IMG/VR virus record: IMGVR_UViG_3300003789_000009
Location: 1-24,440 of that record
Strand: one strand, 5' to 3'
DNA from: a virus
Length of the DNA stretch: 24,440 nucleotides
In this document: positions 15,077 through 24,440 of the stretch, one piece after another
Numbering within the stretch: position 1 is the stretch's first letter
Layout of the letters: every line of letters starts with the position of its first letter
Translations under genes and position numbers: made by a program
Notes under the pieces: model-generated
Seen by the model: only the letters and a program-made list of their open reading frames with translations
Databases searched by the model: none
Told to the model about the DNA's origin: nothing

Positions 15077-17701
15077 TTATCTTTGATTGTTGTTAAGGTT
15101 AAAAGACTTGGCACGAAGGGAAGGAACTTTAAAGTCACCTAACCATGCTTCCATAGAGCCTTTGAACTTAGTGATAGTACGACCAGCACGATCTTTCTCA
15201 TGAATCTCAATCAATTGGTCAGCAGCGTACATTGTTGGTGACTTAGCAGCGATCAAAGCATCAGCATAAATCTGTTTTTCAGCAATAGCTAACAATTTAG
15301 CATCTTTGATAGAAGCCAAACTTACATCTTTATAAGCATCGCTATATGCTTGCAAACCACGAGCCATACGCTTGCGGTATGACAAGAGGCTTTCACCAGC
15401 TAATGGGCGAGAAGCAGATTTACCGAAAGCAGCATAGACAGAATCAGCTTTAGCTTGTGCATCAGCATATTTAGCTTCTTCTTCATCTTTTTTAGCAGCT
15501 TCTTCTTCATCGTCACACATGGCTTCTTCGTCATCATCTTTCTTAAATTCCATGTGACCGGGATGCTCAACTTCACCTTCGTCATCTGGCTTAATTTCGC
15601 CAGCTTTACCATGCTCAACAGGATCAGATCCTTCGGCATCTTTTTTAGCTTTACGCATCATGAATTTTTTAGCTTTAGCTTCAGACTCATCATCCATCTT
15701 AGCTTCTTCTTCTTCTTCATCATCGCACATAGCTTCTTCATCGTCATCTTTACGATGTTTAGCCATTTTTGCATCATCATCTTTACGAGCTTTTTTCTTG
15801 TCAGCAGCGGTTACTAGTGGAGCAGCAGGTAAATCTTTTTCCATGCTATCAACACGAGCAGCCAAGTTGCCAAGAGCAGCCAGAATTGCATCAAGTTTTT
15901 CGCCTTGGGCATCTGCCTTTGGCTCAATCATTTTCTCAGTCATATCAGACACCTCAGGGTTAGTTAGTAATACTCCAGCGGGATCTCCGCCCTTGTCCCA
16001 TACCCCTTTAGAACCTCTAGCTTTTGTTACGATAGCTATATGATCTAAAAGGAATGGCACACCTTCAATCAAGAGTGGATCTCCATTCTCAGTTGTAAGT
16101 GTAGTGTTTCCCGCAGTATTGTCAAATACTACGGAAGGTGAGGTGCTAATTTCGCCCTCACAAATCTCGTTTACTGCATCTTGATCGTATATTTTTGCGA
16201 TGCCCCAGACCTCATTGCCCTTAATATATGGCAGCATAATACTTCCTACTGCACGATCTTTAAATTCTTTTGATGTTAAAACTTGTGTATCTGGGTGATC
16301 CATAATGACCATCAAGCCATTGCATCTTTCCAAGAATTGTTGATTTAGATAAAGGGATGGATCTCTCCAAACATTTTCACCAATCGAACCTCGGTAAGCC
16401 AGACCTGTACCAGTAATACGGATTGCCAATAACATAATGTTGGCATACATCTGCGGACTTGGAATCAAGCCTTCCATCATCAATTTTGCTACATCGGTTT
16501 CTGTTTTTGCACTTGCAATTCGGCAAGCAATATCCAGACCGGGGTGAAGGGGTAGTGGTGGGCATTCTAAGTTACACCAATCATAGCCAGTTGACTCGTA
16601 ATTTAGAGTGACAGCTTCTTTTTTGACATTTCTAGCGATATAGGTACAGAATTGCCCATCGTCATATAATACTTCTAGCTTGCCATCGTATTTAAGACCT
16701 GTTTCTTCAAAACATTCTCTACGAGCTGCTTCTTCTAAACTACTGTCTTTTTCATTTTGATGACCACCGGGGACACACCAAGTTCCGGGGAAGTCACCGC
16801 CATTACCTCTGCGAATTAATAGGGTTTCGCCTTCAGCAGTAACGAACATAATTCCTGCTGCACGACCTTGTGCGCCACCATTGTTTGATACTGGCATTTT
16901 GACTAAAGGCTCACTAGCCACTAAATCCGCTGCATCATCTTTAGCATCTGGTACGCAATTTGGCACTTGTTTGCCATTTTTTTCTTTCATACCATATTGC
17001 GTATAGCCTTCCCAACAAGGATCGGCATCAACATACTTTTCTAGCTCATCTATTACCTTGATTAATCCATCTTTCAAGGCATCAACATCGTCATCACACT
17101 TCCATTTTCTCAATGCTTTATTGATTCTAGAATCTGGATCATGGGCTGTTTTGCTAGATGTTAGCTTGGCTTTCATGCCCTTCATTCTGGCGCAGAAAGA
17201 GGCTTTTCTTGAACCGCCTTCTGGCTGTGGGGCTTTTAAATGTGCGCCATGCTCTTTATTGTATGACTCACGACCTTTTTCGTTTAAGCCACCATTTTTG
17301 TTTTTGCCTTCTTTGGTTTCCCATGCTTCGGAATCCTCGCCCATGCGAGGGACTGCGATGTTCTGATCTTTTTTGTATTCGGTAATAAGTTGAGCAATTT
17401 GCGCTATTTCGTTTTGAATAGGTTTAAGTTGCTCTCTACCATTGCGAACTATTACTTCGCTATCTTTTTTGAATTCTGGGGTTGACAGTAAAGTTGGTTC
17501 TTCTGGGAAATCGCCAGAGTTGTCTTGCTTTAGCATTTCAGCGAGTAATACTCTTTCAAGCCATTGTTCGGCTGATTCTTCTTCGCTATCTTCTGAATGC
17601 TTAATGAATTTTTTAGCCACTTCCTGAGGTATTCCGATGTTGCTCTTGCCTGAAGCAGCAGCATACATCGCTTTTCTTTGTTGCTCAGATTGAAATGGCA
17701 T
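15077..17701 (-). CDS. Nudix / DUF2213 prohead protease / acidic scaffold fusion
   Basis: This 874-residue protein contains several modules. Residues 1-36 carry 'MPFQSEQQRKAMYAAASGKS', common in phage head proteins. Residues 137-202 carry 'GGLNEKGRESYN...SFCARMKGMKAKL...RINKALRKWKC', a phage domain I recall as DUF6321. Residues about 278-380 are a Nudix domain (box 312-336, with RECFEETGL; one extra residue in the loop after GG). Residues about 415-585 are DUF2213-like, with H469 and S519/S521 as likely protease residues. Residues about 590-745 are extremely acidic/basic, with two copies of KDDDEEAMCDDEEE 70 residues apart. The C-terminal 130 residues are helical. It likely directs prohead assembly and cleavage. 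DUF2213 as protease is family knowledge; packaging of the Nudix part is inferred. Confidence 0.82.
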   Translation of the reverse strand: MPFQSEQQRKAMYAAASGKSNIGIPQEVAKKFIKHSEDSEEESAEQWLERVLLAEMLKQDNSGDFPEEPTLLSTPEFKKDSEVIVRNGREQLKPIQNEIAQIAQLITEYKKDQNIAVPRMGEDSEAWETKEGKNKNGGLNEKGRESYNKEHGAHLKAPQPEGGSRKASFCARMKGMKAKLTSSKTAHDPDSRINKALRKWKCDDDVDALKDGLIKVIDELEKYVDADPCWEGYTQYGMKEKNGKQVPNCVPDAKDDAADLVASEPLVKMPVSNNGGAQGRAAGIMFVTAEGETLLIRRGNGGDFPGTWCVPGGHQNEKDSSLEEAARRECFEETGLKYDGKLEVLYDDGQFCTYIARNVKKEAVTLNYESTGYDWCNLECPPLPLHPGLDIACRIASAKTETDVAKLMMEGLIPSPQMYANIMLLAIRITGTGLAYRGSIGENVWRDPSLYLNQQFLERCNGLMVIMDHPDTQVLTSKEFKDRAVGSIMLPYIKGNEVWGIAKIYDQDAVNEICEGEISTSPSVVFDNTAGNTTLTTENGDPLLIEGVPFLLDHIAIVTKARGSKGVWDKGGDPAGVLLTNPEVSDMTEKMIEPKADAQGEKLDAILAALGNLAARVDSMEKDLPAAPLVTAADKKKARKDDDAKMAKHRKDDDEEAMCDDEEEEEAKMDDESEAKAKKFMMRKAKKDAEGSDPVEHGKAGEIKPDDEGEVEHPGHMEFKKDDDEEAMCDDEEEAAKKDEEEAKYADAQAKADSVYAAFGKSASRPLAGESLLSYRKRMARGLQAYSDAYKDVSLASIKDAKLLAIAEKQIYADALIAAKSPTMYAADQLIEIHEKDRAGRTITKFKGSMEAWLGDFKVPSLRAKSFNLNNNQR

Positions 17702-17709
17702 AGACTAAC

Positions 17710-18510
17710 CTACTGTTGTTTTTCGGATTGTAACGCTTCCTCACCCTTTTTTGTCAGCATTTCTGCTGGCAATTTTTTTAAATTATATATGTATTTGTAA
17801 GAACAGCGACAATAAACTTCTTCACCGGGGGTTGTTATGTCATCGGTATAACCATTAATCGGTTTTATGTAACCTTTTTCTGATGCCCAGTTACCTCGGA
17901 TCACATAGATTTTATTATCTCTTTCTTTGTGATCTTTACGATAGTTATAGTTTGGTTGTTTCCAATGAGAATGCCATTGACCAGCAATTGCGCCACCATC
18001 AACTGCAACAATATCGTTAATATTTGCAATGAGTTTGTGGGTTTGATCTATTACAACTCTGCGTTGCTCAAAAGGCATTTTGCCTAATGATTTTTTAATA
18101 GCTTGTTTTTCTTTTACTTTATCTACTGCCTTCGAGCCACCAGCAGGAATGGATGTAGCCCATCCTTGAAAACGCTGTAATACATCAGCGATATTCTTTT
18201 CTCTATTTAATTTAATCAGATTAGCGGAAGCCATGATCCTACGATCTAGTTCAGATCGCAGGGTAGGCTTTAATCTATCTACTGTAAATCTAGTAACATT
18301 TTTGTTAATAAGACCGCCCTTAACCACCAGACGATTAAATGCTGTTGTCAAAGCCTTTTCCATTTCCTGATTCATTTTCCAATCAGGAATTAGCTCTTTC
18401 TCAGCAGCCTCTTTGATTTTCTTGAGCCATTCATCAATTCGATCTTGTGAATCGAACCCATGCTCAATAATGTCATTGACGGCAGCGGTCAATACTTCAA
18501 AAAATGTCAT
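17710..18510 (-). CDS. MuF-like head morphogenesis protein
   Basis: This 266-residue protein has a helical N-terminal half (about residues 1-165). The C-terminal MuF-type motif follows at about residues 175-240: 'AGQWHSHWKQPNYNYRKDHKERDNKIYVIRGNWA', then 'PGEEVYCRCSYKYIYNL'. The H..R.DH and CRC residues are the family signature, probably a metal or structural site. Members are minor head proteins bound near the portal. Here the gene lies upstream of the scaffold/protease but is separated from the portal by the kinase and the island of small genes. Its ATG overlaps the preceding stop (ATGA). Confidence 0.85.
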   Translation of the reverse strand: MTFFEVLTAAVNDIIEHGFDSQDRIDEWLKKIKEAAEKELIPDWKMNQEMEKALTTAFNRLVVKGGLINKNVTRFTVDRLKPTLRSELDRRIMASANLIKLNREKNIADVLQRFQGWATSIPAGGSKAVDKVKEKQAIKKSLGKMPFEQRRVVIDQTHKLIANINDIVAVDGGAIAGQWHSHWKQPNYNYRKDHKERDNKIYVIRGNWASEKGYIKPINGYTDDITTPGEEVYCRCSYKYIYNLKKLPAEMLTKKGEEALQSEKQQ

Positions 18511-18677
18511 TCATCGCCTTCAGGCAATTTGCCCCAATTGTCAATGTATTCAGGTGTCATAAGCTCTTTCACCTTCGCATCTTTTCGGGCTTCTTCTTCG
18601 TTGTAAAGCTCATCCCATGACTTGTCACCAACTTTCTCAAGCCATTTCTTTTTTGCTTCTTCAAATGATGTTGCCAT
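18507..18677 (-). CDS. Small conserved-looking protein before MuF gene
   Basis: This 56-residue frame (MATSFEEAKKKWLEKV...NWGKLPEGDE) has a very good AAGGAG site seven bases before the ATG and ends TGA sharing ATGA with the MuF-like gene, so the two are translationally coupled. It is charged and helical with several tryptophans (W12, W21, W48). It overlaps the end of the HTH gene by 17 bases. I do not recognise a family; the coupling suggests a role with the minor head protein. Confidence 0.75.
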   Translation of the reverse strand: MATSFEEAKKKWLEKVGDKSWDELYNEEEARKDAKVKELMTPEYIDNWGKLPEGDE

Positions 18678-18882
18678 AATTACTCCTTTTAATTAAGAAT
18701 AATTCCCATGCACAAGGATGCATTCTGCTCTTGCCAGTTTCGTAATTACTCCATCTTGCTTGAGTAGTATAAATCAAACTAGCAGCTTTAGATTGTGATA
18801 ATTCACCCCTTGCGCCAATAATTTCGGTAGGTAAAGGGACAACCCCAAGGCTGCCCCTATTGCGTTTCTTAGTAATACTCAT
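18661..18882 (-). CDS. Small XRE-like helix-turn-helix protein
   Basis: This 73-residue protein contains 'GARGELSQSKAASLIYTTQARWSNYETGKSRMHPCAWELFLIKRS'. The pattern 'R..LsQ..AA.l.y....rW..yE.G...Mhp..WELF.lK' is a familiar single-domain phage/bacterial HTH of XRE type. It may bind the inverted repeats in this island, but that is not shown. It is preceded by a three-codon mini-ORF (ATG AAA TAT TAA, 18895-18884) with a better-spaced AAGGA than the HTH gene itself, so translation may be by re-initiation. It overlaps the next gene by 17 bases and is the last regulatory-type gene before the head genes resume. Confidence 0.7.
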   Translation of the reverse strand: MSITKKRNRGSLGVVPLPTEIIGARGELSQSKAASLIYTTQARWSNYETGKSRMHPCAWELFLIKRSNYGNII

Positions 18883-18925
18883 ATTAATATTTCATTTTCT
18901 GTCCTTGTTAGAGGGATCACCGCCA

Positions 18926-18942
18926 GAACTATTCTCTAGTTC
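18926..18942. promoter_or_regulatory. Inverted repeat GAACTA-N5-TAGTTC in HTH gene leader
   Basis: A perfect six-base inverted repeat lies 44 bases upstream of the HTH start, in the gap 18883-18985. It could be an operator for the HTH protein or a small RNA hairpin. No clear promoter accompanies it. The same gap holds CGAAAGGAA (18977-18969) not followed by any gene start. Confidence 0.35.
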
Positions 18943-18985
18943 CTTTTAGTAAATATCAGAAGATTTAATTCCTTTCGTATGTTAA

Positions 18986-19210
18986 TTAATATCCGTTAGC
19001 TAAAGCCCAACTTTCAATTTTGTTAATGACTCTTTCTGGTACTTTAATTTGCATTTCATTTTTGTAATTTTCTAAATATCCATTAGATTCCAAAAATTGC
19101 AAACTACCGCTATAGTCACCCTTTACAACAATGCAATCAGACCATTCTTCAGAAAAATCTAATTCACATTCGTAACCTTCTATTACACATTTTAAGTTTT
19201 CGATCTGCAT
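18986..19210 (-). CDS. Small protein of unknown function (74 aa)
   Basis: This 74-residue, acidic protein (MQIENLKCVIEGYECELDFS; DYSGSLQFLESNGYLENY; VINKIESWALANGY) looks like a compact alpha/beta domain. No family is recognised. It has the shared early leader CGAAAGGAAAG before its ATG, and the stop of the upstream LPD29-like gene lies in the same TTAATCC sequence. It is thus the second gene of the transcript from the 19.75 kb promoter. Confidence 0.75.
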   Translation of the reverse strand: MQIENLKCVIEGYECELDFSEEWSDCIVVKGDYSGSLQFLESNGYLENYKNEMQIKVPERVINKIESWALANGY

Positions 19211-19228
19211 TTTCTTTCCTTTCGTGGA

Positions 19229-19717
19229 TTAAGCTGCTTTTTGTTCTGCTACAAAATCATAGTACTGGTTTCTCATATAACCACCAGCAAACAACTGGTA
19301 AACCAGATGACTAGCATAACCATTAAAATTCTGGTTATAAAAGCTGTGAGCTTCTTTAAAGCTATCTGGCGAACCTTCCATGCCAGCGTAATAACCTTTG
19401 ATGAACTGGTAAATTTTTTCGCCCAACTCATCACTCATTTTGTTATTAACAAAGGCATACTTGACTTGTGGAATGTCATCCCGAACATTGTCCATTTCGT
19501 AATAGTCAATCATTCCATCAAAATGACCATACTCAAACTGAGCAACATACGCAACCAACTCAGCATACTGCGCTGGTGGCAGATCCATGACATCAACATT
19601 AATGCTACTGCCCATACTGTAGCTTTTGCTACGAACACTACCAACGATGCCTTTTGACTTCATAAACTGACGAATCATTTTGGCAGCACCAGCATGACGA
19701 CTAATTTGCTTTTCCAT
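19229..19717 (-). CDS. LPD29-like phage/plasmid accessory protein
   Basis: This 162-residue protein reads 'MEKQISRHAGAAKMIRQFMKSKGIVG', then 'SVRSKSYSMGSSINVDVMDLPP', 'YGHFDGMIDYYEMDN' and 'DIPQVKYAFVNNKM'. This combination closely matches my memory of the LPD29 domain (large polyvalent-protein-associated), found as free-standing phage and plasmid proteins and in injected polyvalent proteins. Its biochemical role is unknown. It is the first gene behind the promoter at 19745-19782 with a leader CACGAAAGGAT. Its C-terminal third (SFYNQNFNGYASHLVYQLFAGGY) lies outside the core. Confidence 0.7.
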   Translation of the reverse strand: MEKQISRHAGAAKMIRQFMKSKGIVGSVRSKSYSMGSSINVDVMDLPPAQYAELVAYVAQFEYGHFDGMIDYYEMDNVRDDIPQVKYAFVNNKMSDELGEKIYQFIKGYYAGMEGSPDSFKEAHSFYNQNFNGYASHLVYQLFAGGYMRNQYYDFVAEQKAA

Positions 19718-19744
19718 CTTTAATCCTTTCGTGATTGATTAAGA

Positions 19745-19806
19745 CTACAATTTAATAATATACCTATTTAGAATAGATGCAACAATTATTTTTAAAACTG
19801 TTGCAT
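19745..19806 (-). promoter_or_regulatory. Early promoter P1 with overlapping inverted repeat
   Basis: On minus: -35 TTGCAT (19782-19777), 16-base spacer containing CTATT-CTA-AATAG, -10 TATTAT (19760-19755), and TGTAG ending ten bases past the -10 (19745). ATGCAACA/TGTTGCAT (19777-19784 and 19799-19806) is an inverted repeat that covers the -35. It drives the LPD29-like gene. Confidence 0.72.
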
Positions 19807-19813
19807 TCGAACA

Positions 19814-20146
19814 TCAATCCAACCAACCATCGTAATACTCACCGACAATCCCATTAGCAGCTAAGTAATCCAAGACAGGCTGAACTGATTTGTAGGCTGC
19901 GACATTACCCTGAACAAAACCGCAACGCACAATACTTTTCTCTGCAACTTTTCTTTTGCCTTTGCCCAAATACCAAACTCGTATTGCTTTACCACCACAG
20001 CAACTTCCTACATCACCGATACCAGATTTAATCCATTCTTGATACCAGAGATTTTCAGCAGCAGCAATGACATTCATTTTTTCAACCAAATCAGCATCCT
20101 GATATGCCATTACTTTTTTACCTGCCCAGAGTTCAACTTCTTTCAT
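19814..20146 (-). CDS. Unrecognised 110-aa early-type protein
   Basis: This 110-residue protein (MKEVELWAGKKVMAYQDADL) has a helical N-terminal half with 'LVEKMNVIAAAENLWYQEWIKSG'. A segment with paired cysteines follows, 'GDVGSCCGGKAIRVWYLGKGKRKVAEKSIVRCGFVQGN', then a helix 'VQPVLDYLAANGIVGEYYDGWLD'. The Cys-Cys-Gly-Gly and a later Cys could bind metal but do not match a classic finger. It has the leader CACGAAAGGAAAA and is the second gene of the P2 transcript, after the 28-residue membrane protein. Family unknown. Confidence 0.75.
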   Translation of the reverse strand: MKEVELWAGKKVMAYQDADLVEKMNVIAAAENLWYQEWIKSGIGDVGSCCGGKAIRVWYLGKGKRKVAEKSIVRCGFVQGNVAAYKSVQPVLDYLAANGIVGEYYDGWLD

Positions 20147-20164
20147 GATTTTTCCTTTCGTGGA

Positions 20165-20251
20165 TTAGATTACCAAACCTTCGATTGATTCCATATACAT
20201 TGGATAAACAACCAAGACCAAGACAGCGAGGGCGATTAGTGCGAAGATCAT
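20165..20251 (-). CDS. 28-aa single-pass membrane microprotein
   Basis: The frame encodes MIFALIALAVLVLVVYPMYM followed by ESIEGLVI. Residues 1-16 are almost entirely hydrophobic, one transmembrane helix, with a short polar tail. CGAAAGGAAACAAA precedes the ATG, the same leader as its neighbours. It is the first gene behind promoter P2. The stop lies in TAATCCACGAAAGGA, which is the leader of the next gene, as in other pairs here. Spacing, leader and composition support a real gene. Function is unknown; phage microproteins of this kind can act on the cell membrane. Confidence 0.72.
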   Translation of the reverse strand: MIFALIALAVLVLVVYPMYMESIEGLVI

Positions 20252-20276
20252 TTTGTTTCCTTTCGAGAGTTATTTA

Positions 20277-20338
20277 CTACACTTTCAGTATATACCTATT
20301 AGGTATTAATGCAACAACTTTTTTAGGGTTGTTGCATT
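20277..20338 (-). promoter_or_regulatory. Early promoter P2 with 11-bp inverted repeat
   Basis: On minus: -35 TTGCAT (20314-20309), 16-base spacer with ATACCTA-A-TAGGTAT, -10 TATACT (20292-20287), then TGTAG ten bases on. AATGCAACAAC (20308-20318) and GTTGTTGCATT (20328-20338) form a perfect 11-bp inverted repeat whose promoter-proximal arm contains the -35. It lies just after the stop of the preceding gene (20347). Confidence 0.78.
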
Positions 20339-20346
20339 TTTGCTAC

Positions 20347-20613
20347 TTAGTCCGCATAAATTGTTGGGACTTTTTTCTTACCAAGATAAGTACCCATAAA
20401 TTGAGTTCCTTCTACCTGTGGCGCATATTGACTTATTTTATATTTTGCATCAGATGGTAATGGAACTATCCATAATGAATACTTCATTTTTTTGTTGTTA
20501 TATTTTTGGTTTTGAAACCAATCTATAACTTCAAATAAATCTTCAGAAGTTTTCCATTCCCATCCATTACAGCCATAAAAATGAAAATCATCTTTTTCTT
20601 GAAATATCTGCAT
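20347..20613 (-). CDS. Unrecognised 88-aa early-type protein
   Basis: This 88-residue protein (MQIFQEKDDFHFYGCNGWEWK; FEVIDWFQNQKYNNKKMKY; SLWIVPLPSDAKYKISQYAP) is rich in aromatic residues, with several tryptophans. It appears alpha/beta and ends 'YLGKKKVPTIYAD'. ACGAAAGGAG precedes the ATG at a good distance. It is the third gene of the transcript from P3. No family or motif recognised. Confidence 0.75.
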   Translation of the reverse strand: MQIFQEKDDFHFYGCNGWEWKTSEDLFEVIDWFQNQKYNNKKMKYSLWIVPLPSDAKYKISQYAPQVEGTQFMGTYLGKKKVPTIYAD

Positions 20614-20639
20614 AACAACTCCTTTCGTGGTTGAACTAC

Positions 20640-20837
20640 TTAAAACTTAGAAATCCGATACTCAATATCAAAATGAGTAACATCAAGTGAAACTGCTGCT
20701 GGCTCTTTCTTGAAATACTGATAAGCACAAAAAGACAAGAAATCACCTGCTGGATCAGAAATAAATTGCTCATTAGGGATAAACACACCAACTTTCTGAA
20801 AAGCACCATTAACTTTTTTAGCAACCAAGATATTCAT
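20640..20837 (-). CDS. Unrecognised 65-aa early-type protein
   Basis: The start is placed at ATG 20837-20835 (MNILVAKKVNGAFQKVGVFI) because AAAGGGGG lies 5-12 bases upstream. A longer in-frame start at 20879 would lie within the preceding gene and lacks such a site. The product seems a small beta domain (AKKVNGAFQKVGVFIPNEQF; DVTHFDIEYRISKF). It is second in the P3 transcript, 10 bases after the 57-residue gene. It lacks the CGAAAGGA leader that its neighbours have. Family unknown. Confidence 0.7.
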   Translation of the reverse strand: MNILVAKKVNGAFQKVGVFIPNEQFISDPAGDFLSFCAYQYFKKEPAAVSLDVTHFDIEYRISKF

Positions 20838-20847
20838 AAAACCCCCT

Positions 20848-21021
20848 TTAAGCTGGTTGAAACATCTGACGAGCATCATTCATAAAAATCCGATAAGCGA
20901 TCAATTGCTGTTCGCTAAATTCCTCTGGATTCTGACGAATTTCAATCAAGGCTTCCAAGAACCCAATTCCATAGTCCTGACGATATTCTTCAATAATTGC
21001 AATGGCTTGGTCGATCTGCAT
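20848..21021 (-). CDS. Small helical early-type protein (57 aa)
   Basis: This 57-residue frame (MQIDQAIAIIEEYRQDYGIG; FLEALIEIRQNPEEFSEQQL; IAYRIFMNDARQMFQPA) is predicted as a three-helix bundle and is rich in Glu and Gln. It starts behind CACGAAAGGAAATTAAAA and is the first gene transcribed from promoter P3. The composition and spacing strongly support a real gene. 'EEFSEQQLIAYRIFMNDARQMF' suggests a protein-binding helical module. Function not recognised. Confidence 0.75.
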   Translation of the reverse strand: MQIDQAIAIIEEYRQDYGIGFLEALIEIRQNPEEFSEQQLIAYRIFMNDARQMFQPA

Positions 21022-21050
21022 TTTTAATTTCCTTTCGTGGTTAATTAAGA

Positions 21051-21089
21051 CTACATCTTTATATTATTCCTATTTAGTATAGGTGTCAA
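21051..21089 (-). promoter_or_regulatory. Early promoter P3 (consensus sigma70 type)
   Basis: On minus: -35 TTGACA (21089-21084), 17-base spacer with CCTAT-ACTAA-ATAGG, -10 TAATAT (21066-21061), TGTAG ten bases on (ends 21051). The transcript leader is then TCTTAATTAACCACGAAAGGA, nearly the same as P1. It faces P4 across about 56 bases, making a divergent pair. Confidence 0.82.
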
Positions 21090-21106
21090 ATCTATTTACC
21101 TAAAGT

Positions 21107-21128
21107 GTTGTTTTTGCACACAAACAAC
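21107..21128. repeat. Inverted repeat GTTGTTT-N8-AAACAAC between divergent promoters
   Basis: A perfect seven-base inverted repeat with an eight-base centre lies between the -35 boxes of P3 and P4, a likely regulator-binding position for both promoters. Read directly from sequence; binding is inferred. Confidence 0.5.
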
Positions 21129-21145
21129 AAACCCATCAAACATAT

Positions 21146-21184
21146 TTGCATCTATACCAAATAAGCATTAACATATAAATGTAG
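21146..21184 (+). promoter_or_regulatory. Early promoter P4 (plus strand)
   Basis: -35 TTGCAT (21146-21151), 17-base spacer CTATACCAAATAAGCAT, -10 TAACAT (21169-21174), then TGTAG ending ten bases on (21184). The match in spacing and flanks to P1-P3 identifies it as the same promoter family on the other strand. It drives the 21212 gene behind AAAGGAG. Confidence 0.68.
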
Positions 21185-21211
21185 TGTTAATCATCAATAA
21201 AGGAGTTAATC

Positions 21212-21370
21212 ATGGAAGCAGTTTTGGTAGTTCGTGGGTTCGGAAACAGAGTGCAGATCCCATGCGAACCACTCCCATTTTTGCAGCGTGTGTTCGGGGC
21301 GGTTCGTGCAGAAAGAATCATGGCAGGTCTTGATCGTAACTATGGTGTGTTGATTGGGGGTGCAGCATGA
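21212..21370 (+). CDS. Small protein, first gene of plus-strand cassette (52 aa)
   Basis: The 52-residue frame encodes MEAVLVVRGFGNRVQIPCEP and then 'LPFLQRVFGAVRAERIMAGLDRNYGVLIGGAA'. AAAGGAG lies seven bases before the ATG, and promoter P4 is just upstream. The stop overlaps the next ATG (ATGA), so both are coupled. It is basic, with a possible beta-hairpin then helix. The base composition is richer in G and C than its neighbours. No family recognised. Confidence 0.75.
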   Translation: MEAVLVVRGFGNRVQIPCEPLPFLQRVFGAVRAERIMAGLDRNYGVLIGGAA

Positions 21371-21609
21371 TTTCAGAATTCGATCAGCAATGTTATGGCT
21401 GTGACATTCAAGAGTTCATTGCCCAGATCCAACAAAATATTAGCTATCAGCTTTCTGGTGCAAATATGGTTGTTGCTGGTTTGATGAGTGATGCTCAAGA
21501 AGAACTGGCTGTGGGTGCGAATGAAAGAGCTAGACAAACGCTAAACCGAGCCAAAGCAGTTTTGTTTGAAATTATGGATGGTAATTTAGTTGGTAATGTA
21601 GCGAGATAA
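21367..21609 (+). CDS. Small helical protein of plus cassette (80 aa)
   Basis: This 80-residue protein (MISEFDQQCYGCDIQEFIAQ; IQQNISYQLSGANMVVAGLM; SDAQEELAVGANERARQTLN; RAKAVLFEIMDGN) is mostly helical. The second half 'MSDAQEELAVGANERARQTLNRAKAVLFEI' resembles short helical-hairpin phage proteins. A CYGC pair lies near the N-terminus. It is coupled by ATGA to the upstream gene. Family not recognised. Confidence 0.75.
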   Translation: MISEFDQQCYGCDIQEFIAQIQQNISYQLSGANMVVAGLMSDAQEELAVGANERARQTLNRAKAVLFEIMDGNLVGNVAR

Positions 21610-21620
21610 CGAAAGGAACT

Positions 21621-21806
21621 ATGATGTTAGTCAAATATTTTATTGAAGGATCAGAAGTAGATTATTCGGATTGTCTTGAATACTTTATTTTGTATAGTGG
21701 GTTTTCAAAAGAAGATGCAAAAAATGTCTTTGATGAAAACAACAATCCTGATAGTTGCGAATACCTTAGTCAAGAATGTCCAGAAGTAGAAGTAATTTAC
21801 GAATAA
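21621..21806 (+). CDS. Small acidic protein of plus cassette (61 aa)
   Basis: This 61-residue acidic protein (MMLVKYFIEGSEVDYSDCLE; YFILYSGFSKEDAKNVFDEN; NNPDSCEYLSQECPEVEVIY) follows the shared leader AACGAAAGGAACT. Two consecutive ATG codons allow either start. Its strong negative charge and small size would suit a DNA-mimic or binding partner protein; that is only a guess from composition. Confidence 0.72.
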   Translation: MMLVKYFIEGSEVDYSDCLEYFILYSGFSKEDAKNVFDENNNPDSCEYLSQECPEVEVIYE

Positions 21807-21820
21807 TCACGAAAGGAAAT

Positions 21821-22015
21821 ATGATGGGAACTTATTACCAAGATTTGAAAAAGAATAATCCTAAGAAGTATGCTGATTTATGCATCGCTGGCAACTCTGA
21901 TAAGTTTGCTTTAAAGATGATGATCAAAGCCTTGTCAATCCTTCCGATGCTTAACACTCCAGAGGATGAGTTGCGGTTGGTAGCAGCAAAGCGGTTGTTA
22001 AGAAATAAATATTAA
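21821..22015 (+). CDS. Small protein of plus cassette (64 aa)
   Basis: The start is set at ATG 21821 behind CACGAAAGGAAAT; a longer frame starting at 21776 lies inside the preceding gene. The 64-residue product (MMGTYYQDLKKNNPKKYADL; CIAGNSDKFALKMMIKALSI; LPMLNTPEDELRLVAAKRLL) is basic and helical. It is third from last in this set of tandem short genes, each with the same leader. No family recognised. Confidence 0.75.
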   Translation: MMGTYYQDLKKNNPKKYADLCIAGNSDKFALKMMIKALSILPMLNTPEDELRLVAAKRLLRNKY

Positions 22016-22029
22016 TTACGAAAGGAAAT

Positions 22030-22287
22030 ATGATGGATACTTTATTGGCACTTCAAAATTCTGACATCAAGGTAAATGTTTTTATTAGCGATGAAAATGG
22101 TGGGAAAGCAAAATTAAATCGCAAACCTTTATCTGTGGAAGATGGCATTAGTAGATTGAGAAAACAAATTTATATCTCTAAAGATGAAATGAATAAAGCA
22201 CAGAAATTTTTATACTCTGGCATTTCTCAATATACTTTTGTTGGTGAAAATATGATGGTTGGAGATATATTTTTAATTTCCAAGTAA
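22030..22287 (+). CDS. Last small protein of plus cassette (85 aa)
   Basis: This 85-residue protein (MMDTLLALQNSDIKVNVFIS; DENGGKAKLNRKPLSVEDGI; SRLRKQIYISKDEMNKAQKF) starts behind TTACGAAAGGAAATATG. Its 3' end overlaps the end of the convergent kinase gene by 15 bases, and no hairpin terminator lies between them. Its position facing the kinase makes it a conceivable antitoxin or partner, but nothing in its sequence shows that. Family not recognised. Confidence 0.72.
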   Translation: MMDTLLALQNSDIKVNVFISDENGGKAKLNRKPLSVEDGISRLRKQIYISKDEMNKAQKFLYSGISQYTFVGENMMVGDIFLISK

Positions 22288-23445
22288 TAGTTTAAGTCGC
22301 TTCTCTGGGTCTGGAATGAGGTTGCCCTCTTTGTCTTTGATTAAGTTATTCTTAACCAAATGTTCAGCATGGGCAACTAATTTTTTACGAATGCCTTCTC
22401 TGTCGCTGTAAGTTGGAACATCAGCTAGAGATCCTTCTGCCAAATCGGGTGGATCTCCTGTGTTGTTGACAACAGTAATTTTGACACGATCATTATTCTT
22501 ATAATGCTCTGCCAACTTGCGAATGTTTTCGGATGCAGCGAAGTGCGCCTCAATCTGGGTATCGAGCTTAACAGTTCGACTGCGCTTCATATTGAGTAAT
22601 ACTGCTAACTCTAATGGGGCATTGGTATAAACAATATCAATCTTTCCGTCTTGAGCTTGTAGAGCTTCATCAATCTTTTTGGTTGATTTATCGAAGTTGC
22701 CCAGAACGGAATCGAAAGTTAACGGATCTTCTTCAGCACCAATGATTGCTTTAGCCAACTCACCAGCTTCAGATTTACCAGAGCCAGAGCCACCAGCGGT
22801 AAACAGAACTGGAGAAGTATCACCTCTTTCTTTTTTCTCTTTGAGTGCTTGATTCCAAATTACTTTAGACAAGTAGGAGCTAGGCTCATGAACCGCAGCA
22901 GCCAACGAAAAATCTTTGTCGAAGTTTGGATCTAGTCGCTTGACATCATCTGGATCAATTTTGTTTTTAAATTTAGCTTTATAGTCAGCGATCAACTTTG
23001 GAGTATTTTTTAGGATCTCCGTATAAAAGCCATTCTCTACGGCTCTTTGTGCTTCATTTAAATTAGGCGAATGTTCAAATCCGTTATGGTCAATATAGCC
23101 ACCATTTTTTAATTCTTTGGCAGGTTTTAAAGATCTCGTTATTTCCTTGCTTTTTTCTATTTGAGCAATGATTTTCTTCTGTCGAGGTGATCCGGGTATT
23201 TCTTTGAATGCTTTGCCATACAACTTCATGGTTTCTAGGCTTGGCTTATCGCCTTCAGTTGTTTCTGATGATCCACCACTTCCACCACCTGCCGATGTAA
23301 ATTTGCCATCCTCATCCCTTGGATGCTCCGACTCTTTGAAATCATCATTGATGAACATATATTCGTCAGAACGAATCAAAGCTACCGCTAATCTAGCGGA
23401 TGGTACATTAATAAAACGACCAGTTGATTTATTCAGTAGCCTCAT
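22273..23445 (-). CDS. Zeta-toxin-like P-loop kinase with phage head N-terminus
   Basis: This 390-residue protein starts 8 bases after the portal stop. Residues 1-50 include 'ESEHPRDEDGKFTSAGG' (HPRD at 41-44), a motif I recall from N-terminal parts of phage head/MuF-type proteins, followed by a Gly/Ser linker. Residues about 125-205 are helical ('LAAAVHEPSSYLSKVIWNQALK'). Then 'VLFTAGGSGSGKSEAGELAK' is the Walker A site (218-225), followed by 'DSVLGNFDKSTKKIDEAL', 'IDIVYTNAPLELAVLLNMKRSRTVKLD' and 'IEAHFAASENIRKLAEHY', which match the zeta-toxin/kinase layout. Zeta enzymes phosphorylate UDP-GlcNAc and poison cell-wall synthesis; other relatives modify other substrates. No obvious antitoxin lies alongside. 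Delivery with the virion is an inference from position. Confidence 0.75.
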   Translation of the reverse strand: MRLLNKSTGRFINVPSARLAVALIRSDEYMFINDDFKESEHPRDEDGKFTSAGGGSGGSSETTEGDKPSLETMKLYGKAFKEIPGSPRQKKIIAQIEKSKEITRSLKPAKELKNGGYIDHNGFEHSPNLNEAQRAVENGFYTEILKNTPKLIADYKAKFKNKIDPDDVKRLDPNFDKDFSLAAAVHEPSSYLSKVIWNQALKEKKERGDTSPVLFTAGGSGSGKSEAGELAKAIIGAEEDPLTFDSVLGNFDKSTKKIDEALQAQDGKIDIVYTNAPLELAVLLNMKRSRTVKLDTQIEAHFAASENIRKLAEHYKNNDRVKITVVNNTGDPPDLAEGSLADVPTYSDREGIRKKLVAHAEHLVKNNLIKDKEGNLIPDPEKRLKLLLGN

Positions 23446-23453
23446 CTTGACCC

Positions 23454-24440
23454 TTACATCCGAGTAGGAGAGGGTTCTTTTTGAGGTTCAATAGTTCCCT
23501 CAGGTGGTTCAAACTCAGCGATGGCATCTGCATCCATTTGTAGGGTGCTTTGGAACATATCTGGCATTTCATTAAGATTGTCTTGCGCCCATTGAATTGC
23601 AACTGCTCTATTGGCAGGATCAACGACTGGCAGAATGGTTCGCAAGATTTCGGTAATGCCTCTAAGTTTTGTTTCTTCAACTTTTACCTTTTCAGACTCA
23701 GGTTCTTCCATGAGAGATTCCCATGTAGGTTTAAATGAGTTTTTCCAACTATAGAACGCTTGCTCATAGCTCATAGAACCATAAATATCTGGGTATTTAT
23801 TCTGAATGCCGGCATAAAGCTCTTTATTCCATGCCCGATGCATAACAATTTTGTCAAAGTATTCAAACAATGTACGCATATCTTCACGAATGCCATCAAT
23901 GTATTGCACAATGGCTTTGGCATCTTCCGAACCTTCGCCAAATCCTTGTGTAAAGGCTTCATCTTTCAGAAGTAATGCAGGGACATCAGAAGCAGCAGCG
24001 ATATTAGCAATGATGTTATCTCTTGCGGTTGTCATCGCTGTATGTGTATTGGTTAGATTCAAGGCTTCGATGGATTCGTCAATATCAATGGATAGGACAT
24101 TTCCTGTCGTGCCTTCTTGCAAGTAGGTGCGCTTAATTCCCGCAGCTTGTTGCATTAAACGATTAACAATTGATCCTGATGGTTTCTGTTTGCTGATTAA
24201 TAGACCAGCTTTGAAAGTTACCAAGTCATCGGTCACCATAGACTGAATGAAAGATTTCAGAGGATAGACAGCCCTCTGGAAAACAGACCGCCCGGTATAA
24301 CCGAATGCCGAGGACTGAAAAGATAGGTAAATAGGTGTGCCATTAAATACCACGACAGACCGACTAGGATGATAAGGCTGACCAGCAGCAGTAGTATAAG
24401 CAAGAGGTTTCTGGAAGTCAGGCGCATTGGGGTTCTGGTT
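23454..24440 (-). CDS. Portal protein (DUF1073-like), N-terminus outside window
   Basis: The frame is open to the right edge (the edge codons read NQNPNAPDFQKPLAYTTAAG), so the gene is cut there; the apparent GTG start at 24353 is internal. The C-terminal 328 residues include 'FQRAVYPLKSFIQSMVTDD', 'IDESIEALNLTNTHTAMTTARDNIIANIAAASDVPALLL', 'GFGEGSEDAKAIVQYIDGIREDMRTLFEYFDKIVMHRAW' and 'SPTRM' at the end. This is the DUF1073 portal family, forming the dodecameric DNA entry channel at the capsid vertex. The kinase gene follows 8 bases later. Confidence 0.88.
   Translation of the reverse strand, partial: NQNPNAPDFQKPLAYTTAAGQPYHPSRSVVVFNGTPIYLSFQSSAFGYTGRSVFQRAVYPLKSFIQSMVTDDLVTFKAGLLISKQKPSGSIVNRLMQQAAGIKRTYLQEGTTGNVLSIDIDESIEALNLTNTHTAMTTARDNIIANIAAASDVPALLLKDEAFTQGFGEGSEDAKAIVQYIDGIREDMRTLFEYFDKIVMHRAWNKELYAGIQNKYPDIYGSMSYEQAFYSWKNSFKPTWESLMEEPESEKVKVEETKLRGITEILRTILPVVDPANRAVAIQWAQDNLNEMPDMFQSTLQMDADAIAEFEPPEGTIEPQKEPSPTRM

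What the first reader, a model, noticed from the sequence alone, without database searches (positions are those of the whole stretch)
22273..23445. Zeta-toxin-like kinase directly behind the portal, with a head-protein-like N-terminal tag
Seen: a Walker A GGSGSGKS and zeta-like downstream motifs in a gene 8 bases after the portal stop; N-terminal HPRDEDGKF motif plus Gly/Ser linker. Known: zeta toxins are kinases that act on UDP-GlcNAc. Inferred: the N-terminal part may load the enzyme into the head so that it is injected with DNA and acts on the new host or on competing phages. No recognisable epsilon-like antitoxin is seen.
Basis: partly seen in the sequence, partly recalled or inferred. Interest (0 to 1): 0.65.

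Follow-up and report, generated by a model that had tools for sequence, protein, structure and literature searches.

The report
Swappable sugar-kinase effector behind phage portal
This virus gene encodes a toxin-type kinase of a rearranged class known to poison cell-wall sugar building blocks; it occupies an exchangeable slot next to the DNA-entry (portal) gene, where related viruses carry other toxin-like enzymes behind the same short sequence tag, so it is probably cargo of the virus head.

Summary
The gene is real (390 aa, minus strand, 8 nt behind the portal stop), and the Walker A and HPRDEDGKF motifs are there. It is not a classical zeta toxin. The catalytic-Asp block precedes the P-loop, as in the 'topologically rewired' gonococcal ng_zeta1, a UDP-sugar 4'-kinase. 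Evidence: profile E 1e-18; AlphaFold model versus 6eph_B Z 23.1 over 249 residues, versus classical zeta Z 12.1. Asp, Lys and both Arg active-site residues are conserved; dN/dS is about 0.03.

The tag is real and wider: [FW]xExxHPRDExGKF plus a Gly/Ser linker. Positions outside the search pattern are 96% F/W and 94% E in 125 non-redundant proteins. Where upstream sequence was classified, it is mostly portal or head protein; downstream are topoisomerase IB, zeta, ADP-ribosyltransferase, NUDIX, SAM lyase, anti-CBASS and others.

In relatives with 60-100% identical portals, the portal-MuF junction is empty or holds this kinase (separate or fused to the portal), a Tas1-like alarmone synthetase, an ADP-ribosyltransferase or peptidase-like proteins.

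So it is a polymorphic portal-site effector. Virion packaging, injection and substrate remain inferred.

The parts
22273..23445 (-). block-swapped zeta (ng_zeta1-class) kinase gene with N-terminal mini-domain and HPRD tag, 390 aa
23344..23445 (-). N-terminal mini-domain, residues 1-34 (beta-beta-alpha-beta in the model, pLDDT about 65); the same in L162, where tag and effector differ; similar in L188, L187, L209
23299..23340 (-). junction tag FKESEHPRDEDGKF, residues 36-49
23263..23298 (-). Gly/Ser-rich linker, residues 50-61 (pLDDT under 50)
23134..23284 (-). variable segment; unrelated in L003, replaced by a weakly GNAT-like insert in L004
22828..22968 (-). block B (beta2/catalytic Asp/HEPSS helix), residues 160-206: D166 = Asp56, K169 = Lys59 of ng_zeta1; lies before the P-loop (swapped order)
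22771..22794 (-). block A, Walker A GGSGSGKS (K224 = K115 of ng_zeta1)
22576..22584 (-). R288/R290, matching Arg175/Arg181 of ng_zeta1
23454..24440 (-). portal gene, 3' part (start lies outside the window); upstream neighbour, fused to the same kinase in L127/L180, L182, L183, L195, L196
18511..23453 (.). accessory insert between portal and MuF (4,943 nt); absent from L163 (portal 94%, MuF 92% identical), where MuF starts 2 nt after the portal stop
18507..22287 (.). small-ORF array on both strands with a repeated leader (ACGAAAGGAA..ATG); one ORF carries LPD29, one a weak HTH match; no recognisable antitoxin
17710..18510 (-). MuF-type head morphogenesis gene, right border of the slot

Best explanation
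The gene is the effector cassette of a polymorphic slot at the portal/MuF junction of a tailed phage. It encodes a P-loop kinase of the ng_zeta1 class (shown by sequence, model and active-site residues). It follows the portal closely on the same strand and so is probably co-transcribed with the late head genes (inferred). The constant N-terminal mini-domain, the tag [FW]xExxHPRDExGKF and a flexible Gly/Ser linker hold the kinase to the portal or head during assembly (inferred); in sister phages the same kinase is covalently fused to the portal C-terminus through the same tag (shown). The kinase is then probably released or unfolded, leaves the head with the DNA and enters the new host (inferred), where it phosphorylates UDP-activated sugars such as UDP-MurNAc/UDP-GlcNAc at the hexose C4'-OH, draining wall and LPS precursors (inferred from ng_zeta1, PMC5923241). 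The tag, which also separates successive effector domains in multi-tag proteins, most likely acts as a hinge or processing site between carrier and cargo, or as a docking motif; which of these is not settled.
For: Class: profile E 1e-18 to 6eph_B, colinear; Z 23.1, 249 aligned residues, rmsd 3.0, against Z 12.1 for classical zeta 1gvn; invariant D166, HExxS, GGxGxGK, D245, R288, R290 in nine viral relatives; dN/dS 0.03. Slot: empty in L163 and others, filled by kinase, Tas1-like synthetase, ADP-ribosyltransferase or peptidase-like proteins in others; similarity to L162 ends after residue 34 and resumes 2 nt before MuF. Fusion to the portal via the tag: L127, L182, L183, L195, L196. A different portal with the same tag type and kinase: L129. 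Distant L034/L138/L139: tagged kinase gene between terminase and portal. Tag conserved outside the search pattern; portal and head families upstream, effector families including Acb1 and SAM lyase downstream. Multi-tag proteins with 140-711 residue spacing: 13 of 123.
Against: No virion proteomics, no activity data, no cultured host. The window kinase lacks the ng_zeta1 Asn75 equivalent (Ala182), one of two residues proposed to explain UDP-MurNAc preference, so the substrate may differ. The stand-alone gene could act only in the producing cell. The mini-domain model has modest confidence (pLDDT about 65).
Confidence: 0.6

Rival explanations
1. Late-acting helper in the producing cell: the kinase is made with the head proteins, is not packaged, and blocks wall synthesis so that lysis or host shut-off is faster.
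For: Same strand as and 8 nt behind the portal gene; ng_zeta1 expression lyses E. coli (PMC5923241); no antitoxin recognised.
Against: Does not explain covalent fusion of the same kinase to the portal, the shared tag, or the ADP-ribosyltransferase, anti-CBASS and SAM-lyase effectors at equivalent places.
Confidence: 0.18
2. Packaged, but not a cell-wall toxin: the kinase acts on another nucleotide-type substrate (nucleotide sugar, NAD, defence signal) as counter-defence or take-over enzyme.
For: Asn75 is not conserved; other tagged modules include NUDIX, ADP-ribosyltransferase, Acb1 and SAM lyase; AvrRxo1, a zeta-fold kinase, is among the next structural matches.
Against: Base, P-loop Lys, Lys59 equivalent and both Arg of the UDP-sugar kinase are kept; best structural match by far is the UDP-sugar kinase.
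Confidence: 0.17
3. Toxin-immunity or addiction module: the kinase is a toxin held by an unrecognised immunity protein from the adjacent small-ORF array, kept for competition between phages or lysogens.
For: MuF polymorphic toxins of temperate phages are proposed to work in competition (PMC5576092) and PMC12226406 describes immunity proteins for the family; the insert holds uncharacterised small ORFs, including a convergent 85-aa ORF overlapping the kinase 3' end.
Against: No Pfam match to an antitoxin; the ADP-ribosyltransferase version has no room for a partner (753 nt from portal to MuF); temperate lifestyle not shown.
Confidence: 0.05

Closest known systems
ng_zeta1 toxin of the gonococcal epsilon1/zeta1 system (6EPG/6EPH/6EPI, PMC5923241)
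   Same: Same swapped block order, same catalytic Asp, P-loop Lys, Lys59 and Arg pair, colinear fold
   Different: No epsilon1 partner recognised, no C-terminal OB domain, Asn75 not kept; phage head locus with tag and mini-domain instead of a plasmid TA operon
Classical zeta/PezT toxins (PF06414; 1gvn, 3q8x, 2p5t)
   Same: P-loop kinase fold with P-loop, catalytic Asp and Arg residues
   Different: Two sequence blocks are in swapped order; weaker structural match (Z about 12); no epsilon antitoxin
MuF polymorphic toxins of temperate phages (PMC5576092, PMC12226406)
   Same: Constant head-linked N-terminal part, variable toxic C-terminus, portal neighbourhood; (p)ppApp-synthetase toxins there, Tas1-like synthetases here
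   Different: Carrier is the portal or a mini-domain with the HPRD tag, not a MuF domain; MuF is a separate, effector-free gene
Polyvalent proteins and portal/MuF-effector fusions (PMC5512222)
   Same: Late-gene location; zeta-like kinase fused to MuF and PBECR/2H/InPase fused to portal were reported there; LPD29 ORF nearby
   Different: The text searched there does not mention the HPRD tag or a rewired zeta; here the effector is a single-enzyme, swappable unit with documented empty sites

Membership tests
Classical epsilon/zeta zeta toxin | P-loop kinase domain matching PF06414 | tested here: met
   E 1.3e-6, over gathering score, but best stretch only profile 100-186
Classical epsilon/zeta zeta toxin | Order Walker A, then catalytic-Asp block, then beta3 | tested here: not met
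   Asp block (160-206) precedes Walker A (218-225)
Classical epsilon/zeta zeta toxin | Adjacent epsilon-type antitoxin | tested here: not met
   Upstream gene is the portal; ten small ORFs of the insert have no antitoxin match
ng_zeta1 (rewired zeta) class | Swapped block order and matching fold | tested here: met
   Colinear profile match E 1e-18; Z 23.1 over 249 residues
ng_zeta1 (rewired zeta) class | Catalytic Asp56, P-loop K115, Arg175, Arg181 | tested here: met
   D166, K224, R288, R290 invariant in the alignment
ng_zeta1 (rewired zeta) class | UDP-MurNAc contacts Lys59 and Asn75 | tested here: inconclusive
   Lys59 = K169 kept; Asn75 aligns with A182
ng_zeta1 (rewired zeta) class | UDP-sugar 4'-kinase activity | not testable with these tools
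   needs biochemistry
ng_zeta1 (rewired zeta) class | Extended epsilon1-type antitoxin partner | tested here: inconclusive
   No Pfam match, but ng_epsilon1 is unrelated to epsilon and could be missed
MuF polymorphic toxin | N-terminal MuF domain | tested here: not met
   No MuF match in the kinase protein; MuF is a separate gene at 17710-18510
Polymorphic effector (constant carrier, variable C-terminus) | Same carrier part with unrelated effectors in close relatives | tested here: met
   L162 shares residues 1-34 and a 96% identical portal but carries another protein; L209 ADP-ribosyltransferase, L188 alarmone-synthetase-like
Polymorphic effector (constant carrier, variable C-terminus) | Cognate immunity gene | tested here: inconclusive
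   Unannotated small ORFs present; none recognisable
Virion-packaged (injected) phage effector | Protein present in virions | not testable with these tools
   only indirect: portal fusions

The most novel reading that the evidence does not exclude
The [FW]xExxHPRDExGKF motif plus Gly/Ser linker is a general, so far undescribed head-cargo signal of tailed phages (cleavage or docking site) that marks the junction between portal/head carrier and injected effector, and makes the effector complement of a phage readable from sequence.
Probability: 0.4. Interest if true: 0.8.

Novelty: new variant of a known kind. Interest (0 to 1): 0.56.

Why it matters
If right, a short motif picks out packaged phage effectors across unrelated phages, including anti-CBASS, SAM-lyase, ADP-ribosyltransferase, topoisomerase IB, alarmone-synthetase and rewired-zeta types, many now annotated as hypothetical or merely as portal protein. 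The natural pairs of empty, filled and portal-fused slots at 60-100% portal identity make the question of which head-borne enzymes enter a new host, and how, directly testable. It also places the rewired UDP-sugar kinase class, described from gonococcal plasmids, at phage head loci.

Tried and rejected
tblastn of the window protein and its kinase half against cultured phages and plasmids gave nothing, and neither did megablast of the head region; the more divergent L034 kinase had to be used to reach the plasmid relatives. phmmer of the window protein alone against the PDB found nothing; the alignment profile was needed. NCBIfam had no match. The idea that this is a classical zeta with a lost catalytic acid was dropped once block B was found upstream of the P-loop. 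That the block swap might be new was rejected: PMC5923241 describes it. A literature search for the string HPRDE returned only unrelated papers. Pfam gave no family for the L162, L187, L188 or L219 effectors: peptidase-like (HExxH) and GNAT-like are readings by eye; L188 is judged from its alignment with L166, whose relatives match Tas1.

Full report
WHAT IS THERE. The window is part of a 32,146-base IMG/VR virus record. On the minus strand, the portal gene (phrog_146) ends at 23454 and the finding's gene starts 8 nt later (23445, ATG) and runs to 22273 (390 aa). L002-L004 keep the order terminase-portal-this gene. Purifying selection on the kinase part is strong (dN/dS 0.03 against L003 and L004; 0.08 against L183, with near-saturated dS).

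KINASE CLASS. Pfam Zeta_toxin matches (1.3e-6) but its best stretch is only the second half of the profile. The reason is a block swap. In the classical order (as read in the tagged phage protein L092) Walker A comes first, then IDxDxIK..LPEY...VHEESS, then DxT. Here IDPDDVKRLDPNF...VHEPSS (residues 160-206) comes first, then GGSGSGKS (218-225), then FDSVL. The distant phage kinase L034 has the same order, and in the PDB matches only the gonococcal ng_zeta1 convincingly (E 4.9e-8, colinear). The profile of nine viral relatives matches ng_zeta1 at 1e-18. The AlphaFold model (mean pLDDT 83) aligns with 6eph_B at Z 23.1 over 249 residues, and with classical zeta 1gvn at Z 12.1 over 164. PMC5923241 reports that in ng_zeta1 two sequence blocks swapped position ('topological rewiring') and that it phosphorylates UDP-sugars at C4'-OH with Asp56 as likely base and Arg175/Arg181 in the active site. 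The equivalents D166, K224 (K115), K169 (Lys59), R288 and R290 are present; Asn75 is not (A182). So the class is well supported, the exact substrate is open. In the genome collection, relatives of this kinase sit in ORFs of very different length (about 267 aa solo up to 3324 aa) without the tag.

THE TAG. A scan for HPRDExGKF DNA in viral contigs gave 114 stretches. In 125 non-redundant contexts the positions outside the search pattern are also fixed: F/W at -5 in 120, E at -3 in 118, followed by a Gly/Ser-rich stretch (38% versus 15% background). Upstream segments match portal families (Phage_portal_3 17, Portal_Mu 6, Phage_portal_2 2 of 78) plus minor head and MuF families. Genes directly upstream of N-terminally tagged ORFs include portals and head morphogenesis proteins. 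Downstream segments (114): topoisomerase IB 11, zeta 9, ADP-ribosyltransferase 7, NUDIX 4, SAM lyase 3, GNAT, ParB, anti-CBASS Acb1, RelA/SpoT, PBECR3 and others. Thirteen of 123 distinct tagged ORFs carry two or more tags, 140-711 residues apart, which reads like carrier-tag-effector-tag-effector. A few cultured phages have tag matches, including annotated portal proteins (E-values weak because the query is short).

THE SLOT. A portal-anchored scan gave 63 loci; many are repeat assemblies of the same phages. With portals mostly 60-100% identical, the portal-MuF junction is: empty (MuF starts -4 to +19 nt after the portal stop, e.g. L163 with portal 94% and MuF 92% identical); a separate kinase gene (window, L003, L004); the kinase fused to the portal through the tag (L127/L180, L182, L183, L195, L196); an alarmone-synthetase-like domain, fused (L166, L167, L176, L185) or separate (L188), whose profile matches the (p)ppApp synthetase toxin Tas1 at 2.7e-19 and whose model also matches small alarmone synthetases; an ADP-ribosyltransferase (L209, Pfam 2e-17); or HExxH-containing proteins behind another conserved junction sequence (L162, L187; by eye). 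Window and L162 are alike through the portal and the first 34 codons of the next gene, diverge just before the tag, and become alike again 2 nt before MuF. In L003 and L004 the kinase is 99% identical in protein but the segment between tag and kinase is unrelated; in L004 it is a weakly GNAT-like insert.

MECHANISM. Shown: class, active-site residues, tag conservation, slot polymorphism, fusion to portal. From established knowledge: portal C-termini (barrel/crown) point into the head, so a C-terminal fusion would place the effector inside it. Inferred: the stand-alone form is held by the mini-domain and tag in the head, is released or threaded out, and acts in the next host on UDP-sugars. The invariant position of the tag between changing carriers and changing cargoes, and its repetition in multi-tag proteins, favours a hinge/processing or docking role; these tools cannot separate the two.

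CONTEXT. Portal/MuF-effector fusions and MuF-fused zeta-like kinases are known (PMC5512222), as are MuF polymorphic toxins (PMC5576092). New here, as far as the searches went: the rewired kinase class at portals, the extended tag with its cargo list, and the portal-MuF slot with empty, filled and fused states. No antitoxin is recognisable in the 4.9-kb insert, though ng_zeta1's antitoxin is unrelated to epsilon and a relative of that kind would be missed.

Noticed in passing
window 18507-22287: Array of small ORFs on both strands, many with a near-identical leader (ACGAAAGGAA..ATG), plus a 68-nt promoter-like repeat at 19724, 20256 and 21030; looks like an accessory gene array between kinase and MuF.
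   Followed up: partly
L162, L186, L187, L212: A second junction sequence, EHWITLNGGEGxGxHVLINGxGxVxAGAGGKLxG, replaces or joins the HPRD tag at the same portal-adjacent place.
   Followed up: partly
L034, L048, L055, L097, L111: A third recurrent motif, GHEFHGNQHxxG, in tagged or tag-neighbouring proteins; a similar EFNGNQHTGG lies near the C-terminus of the L034 portal.
   Followed up: no
L040:1-1152: MuF-like head protein interrupted by an intein-like segment (CLAPSTRIF...HNC) at the EEVFCRC motif.
   Followed up: no
window 15077-17701; L004:11374-13662: NUDIX plus DUF2213 protein with a DUF6321 domain that is missing from the close relative L004 (762 against 874 aa): another domain-level presence/absence in the head module.
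   Followed up: no
L153, L155, L157, L158: Stand-alone 267-268 aa rewired zeta kinases in Acidobacteriaceae/Acidobacteriales genomes, without the tag; context not studied.
   Followed up: no
tagged proteins: Topoisomerase IB-like domains are the commonest Pfam cargo behind the tag (11 of 114).
   Followed up: no
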